From Dromiciops gliroides (taxonomy: Eukaryota > Chordata > Mammalia > Microbiotheria > Microbiotheriidae): a DNA stretch of 64,000 bases. Where the stretch lies: contig NC_057862.1 in NCBI RefSeq assembly GCF_019393635.1, forward strand, positions 262,088,441 through 262,152,440, read 5' to 3'. Both the position numbers and the translations under genes were made by a program. Positions 13,778-61,544 of this stretch are shown here, piece by piece (positions within the stretch are counted from its first letter, which is position 1; each line of letters opens with the position of its first letter). Under the pieces are notes generated by a model, which searched no databases, had not been told where the DNA came from, and saw only the letters and a list, made by a program, of their open reading frames with translations.

Positions 13778-14294
13778 CTATGAAAAAAGAAGATTTGCTT
13801 GGGTTAATGAGGCAGACATTTTTTAATCCTTGAGATTCATCACAGTAGTTTACTTTATTAATTATTTTATGATTGGTATTCAAAATAACTCCAATAATCC
13901 TAAAGGAGGGTTTCTTTTCTAGCACTGAGGCAGGACTCTGTTGCTTTGCTCATACTTGGATCAAGGTCCCAGTCCTGGGTGGCAGTCCCAGGGGGGTAGG
14001 AGCACTAGCACACCAGAGCCTATGGCCATAATGGAGTGGGGCCTCTCCTCACAGTTCCAAGACAGAAAAGCAGACTTGTGGTGACTCACAGATCAGAGCA
14101 CAGGCCAGGAAAGCAATAGCCACAGCTCTCCTTAAATCATACTACCTCAGAAGAACTGAAAACTTAGCCATTCCTAGAAGTATCTCTGAAAATAGCTGTA
14201 CAAAACCTCTAAAATTTGGGACAGTGCACCCTCCACCCTGAAAGCAGAACCTTATTTTAACAAAGAATTAAAAGTCAAGAAATAGGTTGGGGAA

Positions 14295-14684
14295 ATGAGC
14301 AAACAGAAAAAAATGCTGACCATTGAAATTTACTATGGTGACAAGGAAGATCAAAATACACTATTAGAAGATAACAAAGTCAAAGCTCCTACATCCAAAG
14401 CCTCAAAGAAAAATATGAATTGGTCTCAGGCCATGGAAGGACTCAAAAAGGACTTTGAAAACAAAATAAGAGAGGTGGAAGAAAAAAAGGGAAGAGAAAT
14501 AAGAGTGATCCAAGAAAATCATGACAAAAAAGTCAACAATTTGGTAAAGGAGACACAAAAAAATAATGAAGAAAATAACACCTTAAAAAACAGACTAGGC
14601 CAAATACTAAAAGAGGGAGAAAAAGCCAATGAGGAAAAGAATACCTTGAAAAGCCCAATGAGTCAAATGGAAAAGAGGGTATAA
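14295..14684 (+). pseudogene. L1/HAL1 ORF1 N-terminal part
   Basis: An open frame of 129 codons dominated by a Lys/Glu-rich coiled coil, typical of the L1 ORF1p trimerisation domain. It stops early, and further coiled-coil sequence continues in another frame. Confidence 0.85.
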
Positions 14685-14874
14685 AAGCTCAATGAAGAAA
14701 ACATCTCCCTACAAATTAGGATTGTGCAAGTGGAAGCTAATGACTTTTATGAGAAATCAGGAAACAATAAAACAAAACAAAAAAAATGAAAAAAAATAGA
14801 AGGCAAGGTGAAATATCTCACTAGAAAAACAACTCACCTAGAAAATAGATCCAGGAGAGAGAATCTGAAAATTA

Positions 14875-15159
14875 TTGAACTACATGAAAGCCATGATCAA
14901 AAAGAGTCTAAACATCATCTTCCAAGAAACTATCATGGAAAACTGCCCTGATATTCTAGAAACAGAGGGCAAAACAGAAATTGAAAGAATCCACCAATCA
15001 TCTCCTGAAAGAGATCCCAAAAGGAAAACTCTCAGAAATATAGCCAAACTGCAGAGTTCCCAAGTCAAGGAGAAAATATTGCAAGCAGCCAGAAAGAAAC
15101 AATTCAAGTATTGTAGAGCCACAATCAGGATAACACAAGATTTAGCAGCTTCACATTAA
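14875..15159 (+). pseudogene. L1/HAL1 ORF1 C-terminal part
   Basis: An open frame of 94 codons matching the RRM/C-terminal domain of L1 ORF1p, including ERIHQSSPERDPKRKTLRNI. Frame-shifted relative to the N-terminal part. Confidence 0.85.
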
Positions 15160-15971
15160 AGTATCAGAAAGCTTGGAATAACATATTCCAGAGGGCAAAG
15201 GAATTGGGATTACAACCAAGAATCACCTACCCAGCAAAACTGATCATAATCCTTCAGGGGAAGAAATGGGCATTCAATGAAAGAGAGGACTTTCAAGCAT
15301 TCTTGATGAAAAGGCCTAAGCTGAATAGAAAATTTGACTTTAAAATACAAGACTCAAGAGAAGCATAAAAAGATTAACAGGAAAAAGAAATCATAAGGGA
15401 TTTTAAAAGGTTAAACTATTTAAATTCCTACATGGAAAGATGATACTTGTAACTCATAAAAACTTTTTCATTATTATGGCTGTTGGATAGAGCATATATA
15501 GACAGAGAATACAGGTGTGGGTTGATAATATCTTCAAAAAATAAAGTATCACAAAAGAAGCAAGAAAAAGCTTATATAGTGGAGGGAAAGATGGGGAGGT
15601 AAGAGGGAGAATTGGCTCAAAGAGGAAATAACATACACACTCAATTGAGTACAGAAATCTATCCTACTCTGCAGGGAAGTAGAAGAAAAGGGATAAGGGG
15701 GAGGGAGAGATAGAAGGGAGGGCAGATTGAGGGAGGGGGTAGTAAGAAGCAAAACACTTTTGAGGAGGGACAGGGTGAAAGGAGATAAAGAATAAAATAA
15801 ATGGGGTGGGAATAGGATGGAGAGAAATACAGCAATAGTAACTGAAAAATTTTTAAAGCAAGTTTGTCTGATAAAAGCCTCATTTCTCAAACATATAGAG
15901 AACTGAGTCAAATTTATTAAAATAAGAGTCATTCCCCAATTGATAAATGATCAAAAGATATGAATAGTTTT

Positions 15972-18262: not shown

Positions 18263-18366
18263 TACCTACTATAGTAGTTTATATAGGTAAAGGGATTAAA
18301 TAAATATTTTCTGGAGAATGAGAGAAGATATTCAGATCGCTAAAGTTATAAAGTATTGGGGTTTTT

Positions 18367-18510
18367 TGTTTGGTTTTGGTTTTTTTTAGTGAGGCAATTG
18401 AGGTTAAGTGACTTGCCCAGGGTCACACAGCTAGTAAGTTGTTAAGTGTCTGAGGCTGGATTTGAACTCAGGTCCTCCTGAATCCAGGGCTGGTGCTTTA
18501 TCCACTGTTG
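18367..18510 (-). mobile_element. SINE at the 3' end of the chimera
   Basis: Lacks the first ~18 bases of its head; joined to HAL1 at ACAG microhomology. Its tail abuts the left target duplication. Confidence 0.88.
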
Positions 18511-18780
18511 ACTTTTTATCTTGACTTTCCTGCATCACTCTCATTTCTCTTTCCATTTTTTCCTCTACCTCTCTTACTTTATCTTCAGAGTCTTTTTTGA
18601 GTGTCTCTATGGCTTGAGACCAATTCATATTTTTCTTGGAAGCTTTGGATGTAGGAGCCCTGAAATTGCTATCCTCTTCTGAGGGTGCACCTTGATCTTC
18701 CTTGTCACTAAAGAAACTTTTTATGGTGTGCATCTTTCTCTGTCTCCTCATCTTTCCTGTCTTTTACTTTACTTTACTCC
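18508..18780 (-). pseudogene. HAL1/L1 ORF1 fragment inside the chimera
   Basis: Encodes the ORF1 N-terminus, beginning MRRQRKMHTIKSFFSDKED and including SKASKKNMNWSQAIETLKKD and a coiled-coil start. Nearly identical to 59650-59900. It ends at microhomology ACAG with the downstream SINE. Confidence 0.88.
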
Positions 18781-18944
18781 TTCTTCTTCTTCTTCTTTTT
18801 TTTTTTTTAGTGAGGCAATTGGGGTTAAGTGACTTGCCCAGGGTCACACAGCTAGTAAGTGTCAAGTGTCTGAGGCCAGATTTGAACTCAGATCCTCCCG
18901 ACTCCAGGGCCGGTGCTCTATCCACTGCGTCACCTAGCTGCCCC
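18781..18944 (-). mobile_element. SINE at the 5' end of the chimera
   Basis: Complete head GGGGCAGCTAGGTGACG on the minus strand, directly against the right target duplication. Confidence 0.9.
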
Positions 18945-18999
18945 AAGTATTGGGTTTTTAATGTAATATATAGAAGGAACAAGCTAATTCTATTTTTAA

Positions 19000-28823: not shown

Positions 28824-29421
28824 TGTCATTGGGAAAAATAGGGTAGGGAGTTTGGGATAGGGGTAGGGATTTGGGGTTTGGGGTCCTTAGGAATTCCTCT
28901 TTAAAGAATTACACCCTCTTGTACACAAAAGCGATTAGAATAAGATGGTAGTTTATTTCAGGGCAAGGGAAGGGAAGGGAAACCATGAAAGAAATCCTTG
29001 GACTTCTCATGGGGAGAAAGGCATAGCACAGAGCATGGCTCTGAGATACCAATCTCCTCAAGCAGGAGACAGGTAGATACTTTTATAGAGGACTGATGGG
29101 GGTGACCATCTGAGTGTGGAAAATTCCCTTAGTGAGGGAGGACCATCCCCCCCTGGTGGTGGCTGGAGGAGTTGGGTTAGGGGTGGCTGCAGATCTCTCA
29201 AGCCATCTCTCCCCTCAGGACACAAAGGAAGCAGCCACACCTAATCTTATCTCCCCAGGGTTGAGGGAAACTAGAATGAAGGGTGGGGGTCCCAGAGCTA
29301 GCTCAGTCAGATCTGGTTCCACTTATCTCTTTAGGTGTGTCTGTCCTTTGGTTTAGCTTCTCAAGGAGAAGGTTCCTTGATGTACCCCAGAGAACTTCTG
29401 GGGTGCTCTGGGCCCATAACA
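28824..29421 (-). repeat. 3' LTR of the provirus
   Basis: About 598 bp, read on the minus strand from TGTTATGGGCCC to a degenerate CA end. It keeps a TATA box (TATAAAAG near 29090 on the minus strand) that the 5' LTR lacks. Boundaries come from alignment with the solo LTR at 45690. Confidence 0.88.
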
Positions 29422-29964
29422 TTCCCCAGTTCTCTATATATAAGGAAAGGGGACGATGATTCTTCTGAAACTACTTCATGCTGAGTGGGTCAAAAAAATC
29501 ACAGTGCAGGGGAGGGGGAGGAGAGAAGTAGAGAGTGAGGAGCTGTGAGGTCCAGAGGGTGGGAGGAGACACATAGGAACAGTGGGGTTGAATCCTTGAG
29601 CCTAGATGGAACAGACTTAAACAAAAGTTTTAAAAGAAAACAGGGCAAAAGATGAAAAACTCATCAGAAAAGGAGTAAAAAGTAGCTGGTTCCCCCCACT
29701 CCCTACCCCAGTGGAAGCTGAATGCAAGACAGGGTATGGCCTGCCTTACAAGAGTTAAGTAATCAAATCATAGCTTAGTTCTGTGCCATTCAATGGTTAG
29801 ATTTAAAAAATATTTTTCTTTGCAACTTTTACACATTATAAATAATTCCCAATTTTAACTATTTTACCACAAAAGATTTTAAGAGTAGCAGTAAACAGAT
29901 CAACAGCTGTGAGATAGCTACAGGTCTTCTGGTCTATGCAGTGAATCAAAAGCTCATAAGCTAG
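29422..29964 (-). other. Proviral internal region, unassigned
   Basis: About 540 bp between the gag remnant and the 3' LTR. No pol or env motif was seen. The segment beside the LTR carries the polypurine tract. It probably represents the 3' end of the internal region brought next to gag by a large deletion. Confidence 0.5.
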
Positions 29965-31971
29965 TTACTTCTCACTGAGCTGCTTTTTTCTTGACATCAC
30001 GCCCTGATAAGGCCCAGGTAAAGAGGGTAGAAACAGGGAGTTATGACAGAATTTCTGATCCTCATGCATACACATTAAAGGCAGTGTCTGTCTACATTTT
30101 AGGGTCCTTTCCCTGATCCCCACGACTTTGTGCCTTGATTGTATGGTAGGACCTGAATGAGAGAGTAAGACAGAGGTCACCCTTGAATCATCCCTAGGGC
30201 TGCACTGGGGACAAGGAGGTAGGAGAGGTGGCCTCACCTTTGTGGGGTGTCCCCCACTCCTGTGTCCCAGTTTATTGCAGCTGCCAGAATCTCGGCCACC
30301 TGGAGATCTGCTGGTAGCAGACGTGATGGCTGCTGCTATTATCAAGGCTTGTTCTATGGATTGGGCATGAGCCATCTTTTTTCTCTCTCTGGCTACCACA
30401 AGGTCCCTGTTATTAAAAATCTTAAAAGCAATATCAAAGAGTTGTGAGGATGGGGTCTGGAGTCTAACTTCTGGAGTCTTCTAATGTCAGGAGCAGATTG
30501 GCTAATAAAATGAATATTGAGGACAGTTATTCCTATATCTCTTCCTGGATCTAGGCTGGTATATTTTTTCAGAGAGTCCACAAGGCGACTCATGAAAAGA
30601 GCTGGGTTTTCCTCAGGCCCCTGTGTGACCTCCTTTACCTTCTCATAACTGACTTGTTTCTTAACCCCCCCTTCTCCTTCCCTCAACCAGGCAGGTGACC
30701 ATGTGGTTCCTATGAGCCCTGTCTTCTCTATTACGATAGTCCCATCTTGGGTCTACAGCTGGAACAGTTGTAGTTCCAGGAACCCCAGCCCAATTTCCAA
30801 CCTGCAAGTATTTGTCCCCGACTTGTACCGCCAGGTCCCAAATCTGTTTTTTCTCATCAGGGGTATAACAGCTGGCAAGAATAATTTGCAAATTGGTCCA
30901 GGGAAGGTCAAACTGCACTGTCACACACTTAAAGCAAACTATGAACTTTGTGGGGTTCTCTGAGCAACACCCCAATTTCTCTTTAATCTGAGATAAACTG
31001 CTCATGGAAAAAGGAACATGCATTAGTGTTGTATCCTTCCCAATGGGAAATTCCCTTAATGGAAGCAGGGGAGCAGTGGGAGATGCTGGTACAGACCTGG
31101 GTGAAGCCGGTTGGAGAGGGGATGTGGATGCTAATGGAATAGGTGGCTTGGGTGGAGGCAGAGCCAGAGGATTAGGTGAATGAGCCAGGTTAGTCTGTGA
31201 AGTGGGTGGGGGAGGAGTAAAGGCTACTGGAGGAATGGGCATAGGCAACTGCAGATTAAGTAAAGCAGATGCAATAGGCTGCTGAGTGGAAAAAATAGGA
31301 GAATAGAGAATGTATTGGAACTCCCCCAGACTGTGACAGGGGTACAGCTGTGAGGGGTACAGCTGGATAGATTGTGGAGACCGCTGTTGGGTGGGGCAAA
31401 TAGAAGAATACTGACATCCACTCCCAGTGTGGCTGGAAATTGGCTGTGGAGGGCACAGGAGATTGGTTCTGAGATCAGCCAGTGGGCAAAGAGAAGTCTC
31501 AGTCATGGAGTGGTATGACAGTGGTTGACCCATAGGTACTGAAGCAGGCGGGGAAGAAGTGAGGTGAGAAACAGGTAGGGAATGAGTCTGAGGAGCAGGA
31601 GGGGATGGGGTCCCAGAGGAAGTGCCAGAAGGGTTAGCTAATTGCTTGGACTTGCGGTGATTTTCTACCAGCAAGAGGACATCATCCTTTCCTTTTGACT
31701 TCTGGCTTAAAGCCATAAAGGCCAAAATGTATGGGATCTCTGTCCATCTCCCTTCACGCTTGCAAAACTTGTCCAATTGCAAAATGGTGTTATAGTTAAA
31801 GGTTCCGTGTACAGACCAATTTCCTTGAGATCCTAGCGGATACTGTGGCCAGACAGTGTTACAATAATAGATCAAACATCTCTTTCTCAAATTTTTAAGT
31901 TCTAATTTAGTCCAATCCCTGAGGATACACCCCAGTGGTGAGCCTTTTGCTACACTCCCTTTCTGCCCCAT
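29965..31971 (-). pseudogene. gag: Retroviral gag, partly open, with frame breaks
   Basis: A 436-codon frame (31971-30661) starts Met-Gly, a myristoylation context. It has a matrix-like domain (about residues 1-100), a long Pro/Ser/Thr-rich segment (about 105-300) ending in a PTAP late-domain motif at about 298-301, and the start of a gammaretroviral-type capsid. It breaks near 30665-30671, at a run of seven C on the plus strand, and capsid homology continues in another frame (30686-30393). A further shift near 30400 leads to a basic nucleocapsid-like tail. No intact zinc knuckle was seen. Old host-genome copy; not functional. Confidence 0.85.
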
Positions 31972-31989
31972 GGCTGTACCCAGAAATTG

Positions 31990-32230
31990 TCCTGTCTAAG
32001 GAGAATAGTCTGAACGTGGTTCAGATGTTAGGTTGAGCTTTCTCAAGGGAGGGAGACACTGGCTGCCTGTCTCGTGGAAGAGCAGAGTGCTGGCAAGAGA
32101 TAGACACACAAACACAAAAGTTCTTACCCAGAAACATGGAGTTCGAGCATGGTTCGGATGTCTAGCTGAGCTTTTGGCGAGGGAGGGAGCCCCAGGCTGC
32201 CCATCCGCTGTTGTGTGCAAAAACTGACCG
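31990..32230 (-). repeat. Tandem duplication in the proviral leader
   Basis: Two related segments, about 32010-32090 and 32140-32215, share the order GTGGTTCAGATGT / ATGGTTCGGATGT, then GAGCTTT, then GAGGGAGG and GGCTGCC. They lie between the 5' LTR and the gag start. Confidence 0.65.
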
Positions 32231-32373
32231 TCTCTACCTCTCCGTGACTCAAATGGGAGGTTGAGTCAGGTGGGAGAGGAAGAAAGGAAACCCAGAAGAA
32301 AGGTTCCTACCTCCAGGTTTTGTGTGCCAAGAGGAAAGAGAGAATTTCCTGTACCCTTCAGCATTGCCAGTTA

Positions 32374-32873
32374 TATTATGGGGAAAATGGGGTAGGGGGG
32401 TTGGGAAAGGGGTTAGGGGTTTGGGGTCCTTAGGAATTCCTCTTTAAAGAATTACACTCTCTTCCACACAAAAGCAATTAGAATAAGATAGTAGTTTATT
32501 TAGGGGCAGGGAAAGGGAAGGGAAACCAAAAGAGAAATCACTGGATTTCTCAAGGGGAGAAAGGCATGGCACAGAGCATGGCTCTGAGATACCAATCTCC
32601 TCGAGGGAGGACCATCCCCCACTGGTGGTGGCTGGAAGAGTTGGGTGAGGGATGGCTGCAGATCTCTTAAGCCACAAAGGCAGAAGCCACACCCAAATTT
32701 ATCTCCCCAGGGGTGAGGGAGACTGGTATGAATGGTGGAGGTCCCAAAGCTAGCTCAGTCAGATCTGGTTCTATTTATCCCTTGAGGTGTGTCTGTCCTT
32801 TGGATTAGTTTCTCAAGGAGAAGGTTCTTTGATGTGCCCCAGAGAACTTCTGGGGTACTCTGGGCCCATAACA
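32374..32873 (-). repeat. 5' LTR of the provirus, internally deleted
   Basis: About 500 bp, homologous to the other two LTRs but missing about 80-90 bp that include the TATA box, plus a second short gap near 32675. It begins TGTTATGGGCCC on the minus strand. Promoter function is probably lost (inference). Confidence 0.87.
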
Positions 32874-45689: not shown

Positions 45690-46308
45690 TGTTGTGGGGA
45701 AAATGGGGTAGGGGGTTTGGAATAGGGGTTAGGGGTTTGGGGTGCTTAGGAATTCCTCTTTAAAGAATTACACCCTCTTGCACACAAAGGCAGTTAGAAT
45801 AAGGTGATAGTTTAGTTAGAGGAAGGGGAAGGGAAGGGAAACCAAGAGAGAAATCATTGGACTTCTCATGGGGAGAAAGGCATGGCATAGAGCACGGCTC
45901 TGAGATACCAATCTCCTCTAGCAGGAGACAGGCAGGTACTTTTATAGAGGACTGATGGAGGTCCGATGAGGTGATTAGATGTTGGTTTGATGAGGTGATC
46001 ATCTGACTGTGGAAAGTTCCCTTAGTGAGGGAGGACCATCCCCCACTGGTGGTGGCTGGAGGATTTGGGTTAGGGGTGGCTGCAGATTTATCAAGCCATC
46101 TCTCTCCTCAAGACAGCAGCAGCCACACCCAAATTTATCTCCCCAGGGGTGAGGGAGACTGGAATGAAGGGTGGGGGGTTGGAGGAAGCTCAGTCAGATC
46201 TGGTTCCACTTATCTCTCTAGGTGGGTCTGTCCTCTGGTTTAGTTTCTCAAGGAGAAGGTTCTTTGATGTACCCCAGAGAACTTCTGGGATGGTCTGGGC
46301 CCCTAACA
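45690..46308 (-). mobile_element. Solo LTR of the same family as the provirus
   Basis: About 619 bp with ends TGTTGTGGGG...CCCCTAACA, flanked by a perfect 4-bp target duplication CTTT (45686-45689 and 46309-46312). It keeps the TATA box region lost from the 5' LTR at 32374. Same orientation as the provirus. Confidence 0.92.
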
Positions 46309-47521: not shown

Positions 47522-47629
47522 ATGGCGGCGGCAATGGCAGAGGCCGAACGGTACTGTGTGGCCGAGGAGCGGAGCGGACACTGCGCTGTAGTGGACGGGA
47601 ACTTCCTCTACGTCTGGGGGGGATATGTG
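47522..47629 (+). CDS. KLHDC1: KLHDC1 exon 1 (coding part)
   Basis: Thirty-six codons begin MAAAMAEAERYC and continue CVAEERSGHCAVVDGNFLYV to WGGYV at donor GTG|GTAAGG. There are two candidate starts: codon 1 (A at -3, G at +4) and Met5, which aligns with the usual KLHDC1 start. The exon lies in a CpG island. Confidence 0.93.
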
Positions 47630-47654
47630 GTAAGGGCACAAGGGCACCTGGAGC

Positions 47655-48270
47655 CCCGACCTTCCGAGGCAACTCGGTGGGAGGGGCGGGGAGACCGCCC
47701 TGGGCCAGCCCGGGCTCGGTGGGAGGGGCGGGGATTGAAGGCGGGGGGGGGGGGGCGGGGGAGTCTCAGGGCCAGCCCAGGGCTCGGATTGGAGGGGGGC
47801 GCTCAGGCCAGCCCAGAGATAGGGGGAGGGGTGGGGATTAGAAGGGGGGGGCGTGGGGAGAGTTTAGCTTCAGCCCCGGTTTCGGTAGGAGGGGCGGAGG
47901 AGAGCACGCACGATGCGGGAGGGGGAGCGTGATCGGCCGGCTCCTGGAGGGCGTGGGGGGCGTGTATGAAGGAGCGCGCACGCCCCACCCCTGGAAGGCG
48001 CGGGGGGAAGGGGAAGGGGGAAGGGGGAGAGGGGAGAGCGCGCTCGCGAGTAGCGGGGGGAGGGAAGGGAAGTGGCTGCGCGCTCTCGGCCCACTCCTGG
48101 AGGGTGTGGGGAAGGGGGAGAGCACGCACTGCCCGCTCCTAGAGGAGGCGGAACTCTCGCGGCCGTTCCAGAGCCTGGGGGTGGAGAGGTGGGGAAGGGA
48201 GCACGCACGGCCCGCTCCTGGCGTGGGCGGGCACGCCTGGTCAGCTCCTGACCGGGGTTGGGGAGTGTTG
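47655..48270 (+). repeat. G-rich minisatellite in KLHDC1 intron 1
   Basis: Two degenerate tandem families are visible. One repeats GGCCAGCCC, GGCTCGG and GGGAGGGGCGGGG with a period of roughly 60-70 bp (about 47655-47850). The other repeats GGGAGAGCACGCAC and CCCGCTCCTGGAGGGCGT (about 47900-48260). The G-strand is the coding strand and carries many G-runs. Confidence 0.75.
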
Positions 48271-58958: not shown

Positions 58959-59122
58959 TTTTTGTTTTGTTTTGCTTGTTTGTTTTTTTTGTGGGGCAAT
59001 GAGGGTTAACTGATTTGCTCAGGGTCACACAGCTAGTAAGCATCAAGTGTCTGAGGCCAGATTTGAACTCAGGTCCTCCTGAATCCAGGGCCAGTGCTTT
59101 ATCCACTTCACCACCCAGCTGT
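58959..59122 (-). mobile_element. WSINE1-like SINE (hotspot insertion 1)
   Basis: Flanked by CCTGATAAACTCTT on both sides (58945-58958, 59123-59136). Confidence 0.93.
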
Positions 59123-59257
59123 CCTGATAAACTCTTTTTGGGATCTCTTTCAGGAATTGATCAGTGGATTCTTTTAATTTCTATTTTACCTTCTGTTTCT
59201 AGAGTTTCAGGGCAATTTTCCCAGACAGTCTCTTGAAAGATGATGTCTAAGCTCTTG

Positions 59258-59407
59258 GTTTTTTGTTTGTTTGTTTTTTGGTGAGGCAATTGGGGTTAAG
59301 TGACTTGTCCAGGGTCACACAGCTAGTAAGTGTCTGAGGTCAGATGTGAACTCAGGTCCTCCTGAATCTAGGGCCGGTGCTCTATCCACTGCACCACCTA
59401 GCTGCCC
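59258..59407 (-). mobile_element. SINE nested in HAL1
   Basis: Target duplication CTAAGCTCTTG. Confidence 0.92.
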
Positions 59408-59620
59408 CTAAGCTCTTGTTTTAATCATGGTTTTCAGGTAGTCCGATAATTTTCAAATTATCTCTCCTGGATCTATTTTCCAGGTCAGCTGTTTTTCCAA
59501 GAATATATTTCACATTGCCCTCTATTTTTTATTCATATGAATTTGCTTGATTGTGTCTTGGTGTCTCATAAACAAACTGCTTCCATTTGTTCAGTCCTAA
59601 TTCTTAGGCAATTATTTTCT

Positions 59621-59896
59621 TCAGAGAGCTTTTCCATTTTGCTTTTCACTCTGTTGACTTTTTTTCATGACTTTCTGCATCACTCTCATTTCTCTTTCCA
59701 TTTTTTCCTCTACCTCTCTTACTTTATCTTCAGAGTCTTTTTTGAGTGTCTCTATGGCTTGAGACCAATTCATATTTTTCTTGGAAGCTTTGGATGTAGG
59801 AGCCCTGAAATTGCTATCCTCTTCTGAGGGTGCACCTCGATCTTCCTTGTCACTAAAGAAACTTTTTATGGTGCGCATCTTTCTCTGTCTCCTCAT
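59621..59896 (-). pseudogene. HAL1/L1 ORF1 start
   Basis: A 91-codon open frame with the ORF1 N-terminus, nearly identical to the fragment at 18508-18780. It then shifts frame; ORF1 similarity continues to 59140. Confidence 0.88.
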
Positions 59897-59923
59897 CTTT
59901 CCTGCCTTTTACTTGACTTTACT

Positions 59924-60116
59924 ACTACTACTACTACTACTACTTCTTCTTCTTCTTCTTCTTCTTCTTTTTCTTTTTTTAGTGAGGCAATTGGGGTTAA
60001 GTGACTTGTCCAGGGTCACACAGCTAGTAAGTGTCAAGTGTCTGAGGCCAGATTTGAACTCAGGTACTCCTGACTCCAGGGCCGGTGCTCTATCCACTGT
60101 GCCATCTAGCTGCCCC
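59924..60116 (-). mobile_element. SINE nested in HAL1, with trinucleotide tail
   Basis: The tail contains (CTA)n and (CTT)n runs (59921-59968). Flanked by GACTTTACT (59915-59923, 60119-60127). The same SINE-in-HAL1 arrangement occurs in the chimera at 18.5-18.9 kb. Confidence 0.92.
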
Positions 60117-60811
60117 TAGACTTTACTCCTTCTTAAAGTGGGGCACTGCTTCCAGGGTGCACTGTCCCAAACTTCAGGGGGTCCCAAGTGGTACAGTTTA
60201 AGGAGAGGCAGGTTCTGCACTTCCTTGGCCTGTCCTCTGTTCTGAAAATAACCACAGGCCTACTTGCTCTTCAACCAGGAAACAAAATTTTTGTTTTGCT
60301 GGGTTGATAGATCCAGTGAGCCTGTGCCCCTCTCCCACCTGGGCCACCACCACTCAAGGCTGCTTCCTGGTTCCCAGCAGGGGTAAACCAACCGAGTTCC
60401 ACCTCAGAGCCAGCAGAGACCCCTGTAATCTCCCCCTGGACAACCACTCAGTCCTCTCACCAGACTGTGAACTTAGTCCCAGAAGACGCTGGCGCTGCAG
60501 CCAATTCAGAGGCTCTGGACATCTCTTTCTCTGGTGAAGCATGCCTGAGGCTAGATCTGTGTCAGCTTGACCTCAGGGTTGGGTTCCACTCCCACCCCAT
60601 CACAGCAGCCCCCTCTTGCCGATCTTCTAAGCTGTCTTTGACTGGAAAATATTCCCCACCCTGTCCTTTTGTGGGTTCTGTTGCTTTAAGGTATTTTCTT
60701 ATGGCATTATGTGAAGGGATTTGGAGGAATTTGGGGGAGAGCTCTGAGTAGTCACTGCCTGTCCTCTGCCATCTTGGCTCTGCCCAGGAAGTCTCTTTCC
60801 CCTCCACTTTT

Positions 60812-60967
60812 TCTTTTCTTTCTTTTTTTTTTTTTTTGCAGGGCAATGAGGGTTAAGTGACTTGCCCAGGGTCATACAGCTAATATCAAGTGTCTGAGGC
60901 CAGATTTAAACTCAGGTCCTCCTGAATCCAGAGCCAGTGCTTTATCTACTGTACCACCTAGCTGCCC
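60812..60967 (-). mobile_element. SINE nested near the HAL1 5' end
   Basis: Flanks CTTTCCCCTCCACTTTT / CTTTCCCTTCCACTTTT. Confidence 0.92.
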
Positions 60968-61007
60968 CTTTCCCTTCCACTTTTGACTCTTTTCCTGATA
61001 AACTCTT

Positions 61008-61135
61008 TTTTTTTTTTGGTGAAACAATTGGGGTTAAGTGACTTGCCCAGGGTCACACAGCTAGTAAGTGTTAAGTGTCTGAGGCTGCATTTGAACTCAG
61101 GTCCTCCTGACTCCAGGACTGGTGTTTTATCCGCC
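61008..61135 (-). mobile_element. SINE with truncated head (hotspot insertion)
   Basis: Lies between two CCTGATAAACTCT copies (60994, 61136). The head jumps from TTTATCC to GCCCC. Confidence 0.9.
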
Positions 61136-61149
61136 CCTGATAAACTCTC

Positions 61150-61295
61150 TCTCTTTTTTTTTTTTTTAAAGTGAGGCATTTGGGGTTAAGTGACTTGCCC
61201 AGCTAGTAAGTGTTAAGTGTCTGAGGCCGGATTTGAACTCAGGTACTCCTGACTCCAGGGCCAGTGCTCTATCCACTGCACCACCTAGCTGCCCC
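61150..61295 (-). mobile_element. SINE with small deletion (hotspot insertion)
   Basis: Flanked by TGATAAACTCT on the left and AATAAACTCTTTT on the right; lacks about ten bases in the GGGTCACAC region. Confidence 0.9.
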
Positions 61296-61344
61296 AATAA
61301 ACTCTTTTTTTTTACTCTTTTTTTTTTTTCCCTCTGTAAAGTAG

Positions 61345-61493
61345 CATTTTTTTTTTTTTTTGGTGAGGCAATTGGGATTAAGTGACTTGCCTAGTGTCAC
61401 ACAGCTAGTAAGTATCAAGTCTCTGCAGCTGGATTTGGACTTAGGTTCTTCTGAATCCAGGGCTGGTGCTCTATCCACTGTGCCACCTAGCTG
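61345..61493 (-). mobile_element. SINE with expanded G/C-run head (hotspot insertion)
   Basis: Right end runs into 29 C residues, then GATAAACTCTTAATAAA, the original target continuing. Confidence 0.9.
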
Positions 61494-61523
61494 CCCCCCC
61501 CCCGCCCCCCCCCCCCCCCCCCC
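61494..61523. repeat. Poly-C tract
   Basis: Ten C, one G, nineteen C, joined to the SINE 5' end (a G-run on the SINE sense strand). Confidence 0.95.
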
Positions 61524-61544
61524 GATAAACTCTTAATAAATACT

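What the first reader, a model, noticed from the sequence alone, without database searches (positions are those of the whole stretch)
18351..18960. SINE-HAL1-SINE chimera mobilised as a single unit
On the minus strand the unit starts exactly at a complete SINE 5' head, reads through that SINE's tail into HAL1 ORF1, then switches at ACAG microhomology into a second SINE that ends in an A-rich tail. One target duplication (AAGTATTGGG(G)TTTTT) brackets everything. This fits a Pol III read-through transcript of a SINE embedded in HAL1, joined to another SINE RNA by template switching during target-primed reverse transcription. A SINE 3' transduction of LINE sequence is unusual.
Basis: partly seen in the sequence, partly recalled or inferred. 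Interest (0 to 1): 0.78.

Follow-up and report, generated by a model that had tools for sequence, protein, structure and literature searches.

The report
Mosaic SINE-HAL1-SINE repeat with nearby source
A short stretch of repeat DNA really is a three-part mosaic, but its middle piece was copied from an older, degraded repeat 41,000 bases away on the same chromosome, perhaps by local DNA repair rather than by one RNA that jumped as a unit.

Summary
The anatomy is real: on the minus strand a complete SINE, its tail, a HAL1 ORF1 fragment and a 5'-truncated second SINE lie between one pair of 15/16-nt target duplications. The same SINE-tail/HAL1 joint recurs in this window at 59,651-60,116 (copy B): a SINE inserted in the leader of a HAL1 that still has its 5'UTR. 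The HAL1 blocks of A and B differ at 6 of 272 sites and form a 100/99 clade; the next of 40 scored genome copies is about 93% identical. So A's middle block came from B.

A's SINE head does not look like a daughter of B's SINE. B lies 41 kb away, chance 2.5e-5 under random landing. Seven other SINE-in-HAL1 loci gave no near-identical copy.

I favour local DNA-level copying of B into a resident SINE or SINE stack (0.5), then reverse transcription with two template switches (0.3), then Pol III read-through plus one switch (0.12). No relative's genome was available to decide. Known kind of event, modest interest.

The parts
18945..18959 (-). upstream target-site duplication of unit A (AAAAACCCAATACTT), preceded by TT (L1-endonuclease-like TT/AAAA, motif recalled)
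   Evidence: score reached by 0 of 100 flank shuffles
18809..18944 (-). A1: complete SINE head, nt 1-136
   Evidence: not closer to B1 than to two unrelated SINEs
18783..18808 (-). SINE tail (A)n(GAA)n, shared in kind with B1's tail
18771..18782 (-). AAGGAGTAAAGT: remnant of the downstream duplication of SINE B1 in the HAL1 leader (12 of the 13 bases of B's upstream copy)
18505..18782 (-). HAL1 leader and 5' part of ORF1, copied from B; 6 of 272 sites and one 1-base gap differ
18505..18508 (-). ACAG overlap at the HAL1-to-second-SINE joint (3-4 nt, depending on SINE variant)
18388..18507 (-). A2: second SINE, lacking nt 1-17, with other family letters than A1 and B1 (A27, T43)
18351..18366 (-). 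downstream target-site duplication of unit A (one extra base)
59981..60116 (-). B1: SINE inserted in the HAL1 leader of copy B
60119..60131 (-). upstream duplication of SINE B1 (AAGGAGTAAAGTC)
   Evidence: on B alone weak (9 nt, reached by 12 of 100 shuffles and 16 of 500 near the SINE); uninterrupted leader seen in HAL1 copies without SINE
59915..59927 (-). downstream duplication of SINE B1 (TAGTAGTAAAGTC, altered by a GTA expansion)
59651..59980 (-). donor block in copy B: SINE tail, HAL1 leader, ORF1 5' part up to CAACAG
60117..60810 (-). HAL1 5'UTR of copy B (ends approximate), absent from unit A
59133..59650 (-). rest of HAL1 copy B (interrupted by SINE B2 at 59281-59408), ending before AAGAGTTTATCAGG
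13950..15960 (+). HAL1 copy C without a leader SINE (ends approximate), comparison for A and B

Best explanation
Unit A is a local mosaic. Shown: its middle block (HAL1 leader and start of ORF1, with the joint to a SINE tail) was copied from HAL1 copy B, 41 kb away on the same strand of the same contig, after a SINE had inserted into B's leader. Inferred: the copying was at DNA level. Locus A first held an ordinary SINE insertion, or two stacked SINEs, with the outer target duplication. A break there was repaired by copying from B. The left side paired through SINE 3'-end/A-tail homology; synthesis ran through the HAL1 leader into ORF1 and rejoined the second SINE at ACAG microhomology, losing that SINE's first 17 nt. 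The outer duplication and the start at SINE nt 1 then belong to the resident SINE, not to a read-through RNA.
For: Shared exact joint and HAL1 block, A-B clade 100/99, next scored copies about 93%. Distance 41.4 kb; twice that is 2.5e-5 of the genome. A1's head fits the SINE family better than B1 (log10 likelihood ratio 4.0-6.0; simulated B1 daughters reach the statistic in 0-5 of 1,500 for three rates, CpG sites in or out). A2 begins at nt 18, at the microhomology. Stacked SINEs are common: 6 of 53 neighbouring pairs are on the same strand and at most 80 nt apart. Within the HAL1 block A and B share four letters held by at most 2 of 39 other copies, on a branch of 0.037, so B was already a diverged single copy when copied. 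A passage in PMC8230782 reports gene conversion among neighbouring Alus that falls off with distance.
Against: The anatomy (complete 5' part, same orientation, 5'-truncated last part, one target duplication) is also the published signature of reverse-transcription chimeras (PMC2104539). The Alu conversion cited in PMC8230782 acts within about 10 kb, and the same paper finds conversion-caused homoplasy very rare. No resident SINE or stack without the HAL1 block has been seen. If the resident was one SINE, A1 nt 18-108 should be B1's, which the data disfavour, so a stack or a third template is needed. Plain tests of clustering of A1-B1 differences were weak (p 0.02-0.18). The head of B1 rather than of A1 may have been converted later. 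Another, unrelated SINE-in-HAL1 locus lies about 36 kb from B, so neighbouring HAL1s occur by chance too.
Confidence: 0.5

Rival explanations
1. Target-primed reverse transcription with two template switches. Synthesis starts on the tail of the second SINE's RNA and jumps at ACAG into a transcript that contains B's HAL1. It then jumps from B1's A-rich tail onto the A-tail of a third SINE RNA, which it copies to nt 1.
For: One outer duplication with an L1-type site, all parts in one orientation, complete 5' part. A1's head not derived from B1. Tripartite chimeras with one duplication are published for a fungus and for mouse (B2-U6-L1) in PMC2104539 (passages); chimeras of L1 with many RNAs in PMC13174262 (passages).
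Against: Does not explain why the donor, one diverged copy in a family with 4,520 first-look candidates, lies 41 kb away. Needs an internal switch into the donor RNA and RNA from a degraded HAL1.
Confidence: 0.3
2. Pol III starts at SINE B1 nt 1 and reads through its tail into HAL1 ORF1; during target-primed reverse transcription of another SINE RNA one switch at ACAG joins the two. A1 or B1 was later altered by conversion from another SINE.
For: B exists and has the right joint. No TTTT for 1,211 nt from B1 nt 1, the longest run of the 43 window SINEs (their median is 231 by my count of the list); the 30 SINE-in-leader loci, A and B included, have a median of 727. A starts at SINE nt 1.
Against: A1 is not B1-like, so an extra conversion is needed. 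41-kb proximity unexplained. Seven other such loci have no near-identical daughter (best matches spanning SINE and HAL1 85-91% per query). Of 109 SINE-in-leader loci read, 103 keep HAL1 leader or 5'UTR upstream of the SINE.
Confidence: 0.12
3. An allele of B once carried a 5'-truncated SINE at CAACAG (target duplication AAAAAGTCAACAG). Its continuous transcript was copied into A without any template switch, and the allele was then lost.
For: The joint falls where a duplication starting at an A-run would end. Another HAL1 copy (L045) has a SINE near this position.
Against: B in this assembly has an uninterrupted sequence there. Needs priming far from the RNA end, and shares the proximity and A1-head problems.
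Confidence: 0.04
4. Stepwise ordinary insertions, or a chance match.
For: Nested SINE insertions are common in the window.
Against: No inner duplications in A; the HAL1 block ends on both sides without its own duplication; the outer duplication is significant.
Confidence: 0.03

Closest known systems
Tripartite LINE-made chimeras (Magnaporthe WEIRD/Mg-SINE/MGL; mouse B2/U6/L1; PMC2104539, passages seen)
   Same: three parts in one orientation, complete 5' part, 5'-truncated last part, one 14-16-bp duplication
   Different: here the middle part is an internal piece of a named, diverged copy 41 kb away, and the last part is a SINE, not a LINE
Bipartite U6/L1 and Alu/L1 chimeras (PMC4476161, PMC13174262, passages seen)
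   Same: small RNA or SINE fused to L1-type sequence between target duplications
   Different: there the LINE part is the 3' part; here HAL1 is internal with no 3' end
Non-allelic gene conversion among SINEs (PMC8230782, passages seen; PMC6598467, search listing only)
   Same: neighbouring repeats exchange tracts through homology
   Different: here about 280 nt of non-SINE sequence came along, over 41 kb, and one side used microhomology
WSINE1-type marsupial CORE-SINEs (PMC3403934, passages seen)
   Same: SINE with poly(A) tail and target duplications, recently active in the Tasmanian devil according to the paper
   Different: family name not matched by sequence here; recalled
HAL1 half-L1 elements (name recalled; papers seen only in the listing)
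   Same: ORF1-like reading frame, about 2.2 kb from leader to 3' end in one copy (L072+L074, itself with a SINE and a gap) and no long second frame
   Different: no library consensus was available to compare

Membership tests
LINE-mediated tripartite template-switch chimera | one target-site duplication round all parts | tested here: met
   15/16-nt duplication, 0 of 100 shuffles; none at inner joints
LINE-mediated tripartite template-switch chimera | all parts in the same orientation, 5' part complete, last part 5'-truncated with A-rich tail | tested here: met
LINE-mediated tripartite template-switch chimera | donor RNA from an unlinked locus (expected under random landing, not a strict requirement) | tested here: not met
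   HAL1 donor 41.4 kb away, 2.5e-5 of the genome
LINE-mediated tripartite template-switch chimera | empty target site in a relative | not testable with these tools
   no relatives held for this genome
SINE 3' transduction by Pol III read-through | SINE head of the daughter is that of the source SINE | tested here: not met
   7 of 136 differences, B1's family letters at nt 12, 17, 51 absent; a later conversion could mask descent
SINE 3' transduction by Pol III read-through | no Pol III terminator between source SINE start and the joint | tested here: met
   no TTTT for 1,211 nt; joint at about 460 nt
Ectopic conversion / templated insertion | donor nearby, with homology or microhomology at both joints | tested here: met
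   donor 41 kb away; SINE/A-tail homology left, ACAG right; farther than the about 10 kb cited for Alus
Ectopic conversion / templated insertion | recipient locus without the insert is seen | not testable with these tools
   no orthologous locus held
HAL1 | ORF1 present, ORF2 absent, L1-like ends | tested here: inconclusive
   ORF1-like frame and short distance to the 3' end; Pfam gave nothing above cut-off; no consensus compared

The most novel reading that the evidence does not exclude
SINE-tagged HAL1 copies act as natural tracers, and A-B shows short-range copying. Either reverse transcription at A captured a transcript made 41 kb away in the same chromatin neighbourhood, or SINE-rich DNA in this genome is patched from neighbours over tens of kilobases, so that part of the apparent 'retrotransposed' mosaic landscape is local repair.
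Probability: 0.15. Interest if true: 0.55.

Novelty: new member of a known kind. Interest (0 to 1): 0.3.

Why it matters
Chimeras bracketed by one target duplication are usually taken as evidence of one retrotransposition event. Here the source of the middle piece can be named, and it sits 41 kb away, which random retrotransposition does not predict. If the DNA-level reading holds, a single outer duplication is not sufficient evidence for co-mobilisation. SINE-in-HAL1 joints, which are close to unique tags, could be used to measure how often and how far repeat sequence is copied locally.

Tried and rejected
Composite SINE-HAL1 family: suspected because the joint recurs twice in 64 kb. Rejected: 28 further loci have a SINE in the HAL1 leader, but by eye the insertion points vary (mostly TTT/AAGAAGG or TT/AAAAGTC; some loci share a point), and their HAL1 parts are only 78-89% like B. 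The closest other pair among the 41 copies differs at 6.3% and has no leader SINE. They read as independent insertions into a favoured target.

Second SINE taken from B2 or B3, which lie downstream in B: rejected; they rank 20th and 36th among window SINEs in similarity to A2.

Other read-through daughters: 109 SINE-in-leader loci were read: 30 of the 40 loci, 11 of 20 pattern hits (the pattern had 271 matches; 8 of the 20 were not HAL1, and one, L063, was fetched too short to read), 60 and 8. Of these, 103 have HAL1 sequence upstream (about 20 judged by eye or through stacked SINEs). Two (L138, L143) look like 5'-truncated HAL1 with the SINE's own duplication. Four have non-HAL1 sequence directly upstream: A, L072, L135, L137. 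For the last three no significant outer duplication was found, so they stay undecided. Loci first listed were not read.

Changepoint and clustering tests on A1-B1 differences alone were inconclusive.

Full report
Anatomy. The window lies in a 3.30-Gb genome of 17 contigs. That it is a dasyurid marsupial is my guess from seven large contigs and the SINE type; no call says so. On the minus strand, unit A runs from a 15-nt duplication through a complete SINE (A1), an A/GAA tail, a HAL1 leader and the start of ORF1, into a second SINE (A2) that lacks its first 17 nt, an A/C-rich tail and the second duplication. The duplication follows TT, as expected for an L1-type site (motif recalled). In a survey of 43 5'-complete SINEs of the window, A is the only one with a significant duplication more than 400 nt away. 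No duplication was found at its inner joints.

The source. A self-search of the window found the same SINE-tail/HAL1 joint at 59,651-60,116. This copy, B, is a HAL1 that keeps its 5'UTR; a SINE (B1) has inserted in its leader. B1's own duplication is AAGGAGTAAAGTC. Its downstream copy in B is altered by a GTA expansion, so on B alone it is weak (12 of 100 shuffles; 16 of 500 when only the next 130 nt are searched). Unit A keeps AAGGAGTAAAGT at that place, 12 of the 13 bases. HAL1 copies without the SINE show the uninterrupted leader. The HAL1 blocks of A and B differ at 6 of 272 sites and one gap, against 56 of 270 for A and copy C. In the genome search with the HAL1 block alone, 40 of 4,520 candidates were scored; B was the best non-self match, then 93% and lower. 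In a tree of 41 HAL1 copies A and B pair with support 100/99 on a branch of 0.037. Within the block they share four letters held by at most 2 of 39 other copies; a fifth listed by the script lies beyond the joint and is not counted. The end branch of A in that tree is inflated, because some letters of the second SINE were included. The direction is B to A: B has the full context, A has only a piece.

Is it a family? In the search with unit A, 40 of 6,224 candidates were scored. Of 40 loci examined, 30 (A and B included) have a SINE in the HAL1 leader in sense orientation; the orientation follows from the query. Insertion points vary and the HAL1 parts are 78-89% like B, so the leader looks like a favoured insertion target and not a composite family. 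Seven of these loci, used as queries, had no near-identical second copy; the best matches that span SINE and HAL1 were 85-91% identical per query. Only 40 candidates are scored in each search, so a missed copy is possible but unlikely for a near-identical one.

Does Pol III read-through explain A? It is possible in principle: from B1 nt 1 there is no TTTT for 1,211 nt, while the HAL1-SINE joint lies at about 460 nt. B1's T-free run is the longest of the 43 window SINEs; the 30 leader-SINE loci have a median of 727 nt. But A1 is not recognisably B1's daughter. They differ at 7 of 136 sites, the same as A1 and two unrelated window SINEs (35 full-length copies compared). A1 lacks B1's letters at nt 12, 17 and 51, which 7, 22 and 15 of 48 copies carry. 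A family-profile comparison favours a non-B1 origin of A1 from nt 1 to about 108-122, with log10 likelihood ratio 4.0-6.0. Simulated daughters of B1 reached the observed value in 0, 1, 1, 1, 0 and 5 of 1,500 runs for rates 0.026, 0.05 and 0.08, each with and without CpG sites, and in 0 of 5,000 in an earlier run. That model is simple (independent sites, window copies as the family), a later conversion of A1 or B1 would give the same signal, and the plain tests were weak (changepoint p 0.064 for all differences, 0.18 without CpG; Fisher 0.021 for nt 1-20; weighted by site variability 0.058 for nt 1-20 and 0.017 for nt 1-53). The A1 result is good but not conclusive evidence.

Proximity. The centres of A and B are 41.4 kb apart; twice that is 2.5e-5 of the genome. 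DNA-level copying predicts a near donor; reverse transcription of a free RNA does not. Apart from SINEs, the A-B pair is the most similar repeat pair found in the window, 95% over 284 bases including tail; the next is 90% over 230 and looks LTR-like to me. Against over-reading: another SINE-in-HAL1 locus, not closely related, lies about 36 kb from B.

Mechanism. I take DNA-level copying into a resident SINE or SINE stack as the best reading (0.5). The stack form accounts for A1 being a separate, complete SINE, for A2 losing 17 nt at an ACAG microhomology, for the single outer duplication and for the near donor. SINE stacks are common here (6 of 53 neighbouring pairs; also L071 and L149). A double template switch during target-primed reverse transcription is the main rival (0.3): it has published parallels in form (PMC2104539, passages). 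Shown: the anatomy, the outer duplication, the B origin of the middle block. Inferred: the repair pathway, the prior resident SINE or stack.

Literature. The listings of searches showed no report of a SINE-HAL1 chimera in marsupials (with HAL1, marsupial, SINE and retrotransposon, returned five papers; I did not open them). The library lacks most subscription papers. For PMC3403934, PMC8421209, PMC4476161, PMC13174262, PMC2104539 and PMC8230782 I saw passages only. The templated insertions of PMC8421209 were sought within 100 bp of their donor, much nearer than here.

Noticed in passing
window 58960-61540: A chain of SINEs and HAL1 copy B separated by copies of one target sequence (AAGAGTTTATCAGG and near variants): the same site seems to have been used again and again.
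   Followed up: partly
G000 genome, e.g. L009-L017, L019-L035: The HAL1 leader just upstream of ORF1 is a recurrent SINE target (TTT/AAGAAGG and TT/AAAAGTC); these SINEs stand in front of long stretches without TTTT (30 loci, median 727 nt).
   Followed up: yes
L072 721-2201 with L074 1-965: SINE, 28 nt of HAL1 leader, second SINE, then the HAL1 3' half; upstream flank is not HAL1, and a weak duplication-like match (AAATAAGAACA) lies at the HAL1 3' end (126 of 300 shuffles as good, so not significant).
   Followed up: partly
L135 and L137: Old SINEs directly upstream of a HAL1 leader with non-HAL1 upstream flank and HAL1 running on to its 3' region; no significant duplication found.
   Followed up: partly
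window 59123-59136 and 60994-61007: HAL1 copy B has a full 5'UTR but ends inside ORF1 at an internal A-run directly before its likely target duplication AAGAGTTTATCAGG, as if primed internally.
   Followed up: partly
   Followed up: no
window 28830-32873 and 45692-46308: LTR-like repeats (83-90% alike) with a 436-aa open frame at 30661-31971 (minus) that looks gag-like to me (recalled); Pfam gave no match at E 0.01.
   Followed up: partly
window 47522-47932: Open frame whose start resembles KLHDC1 (recalled); Pfam shows only weak kelch hits below cut-off.
   Followed up: partly
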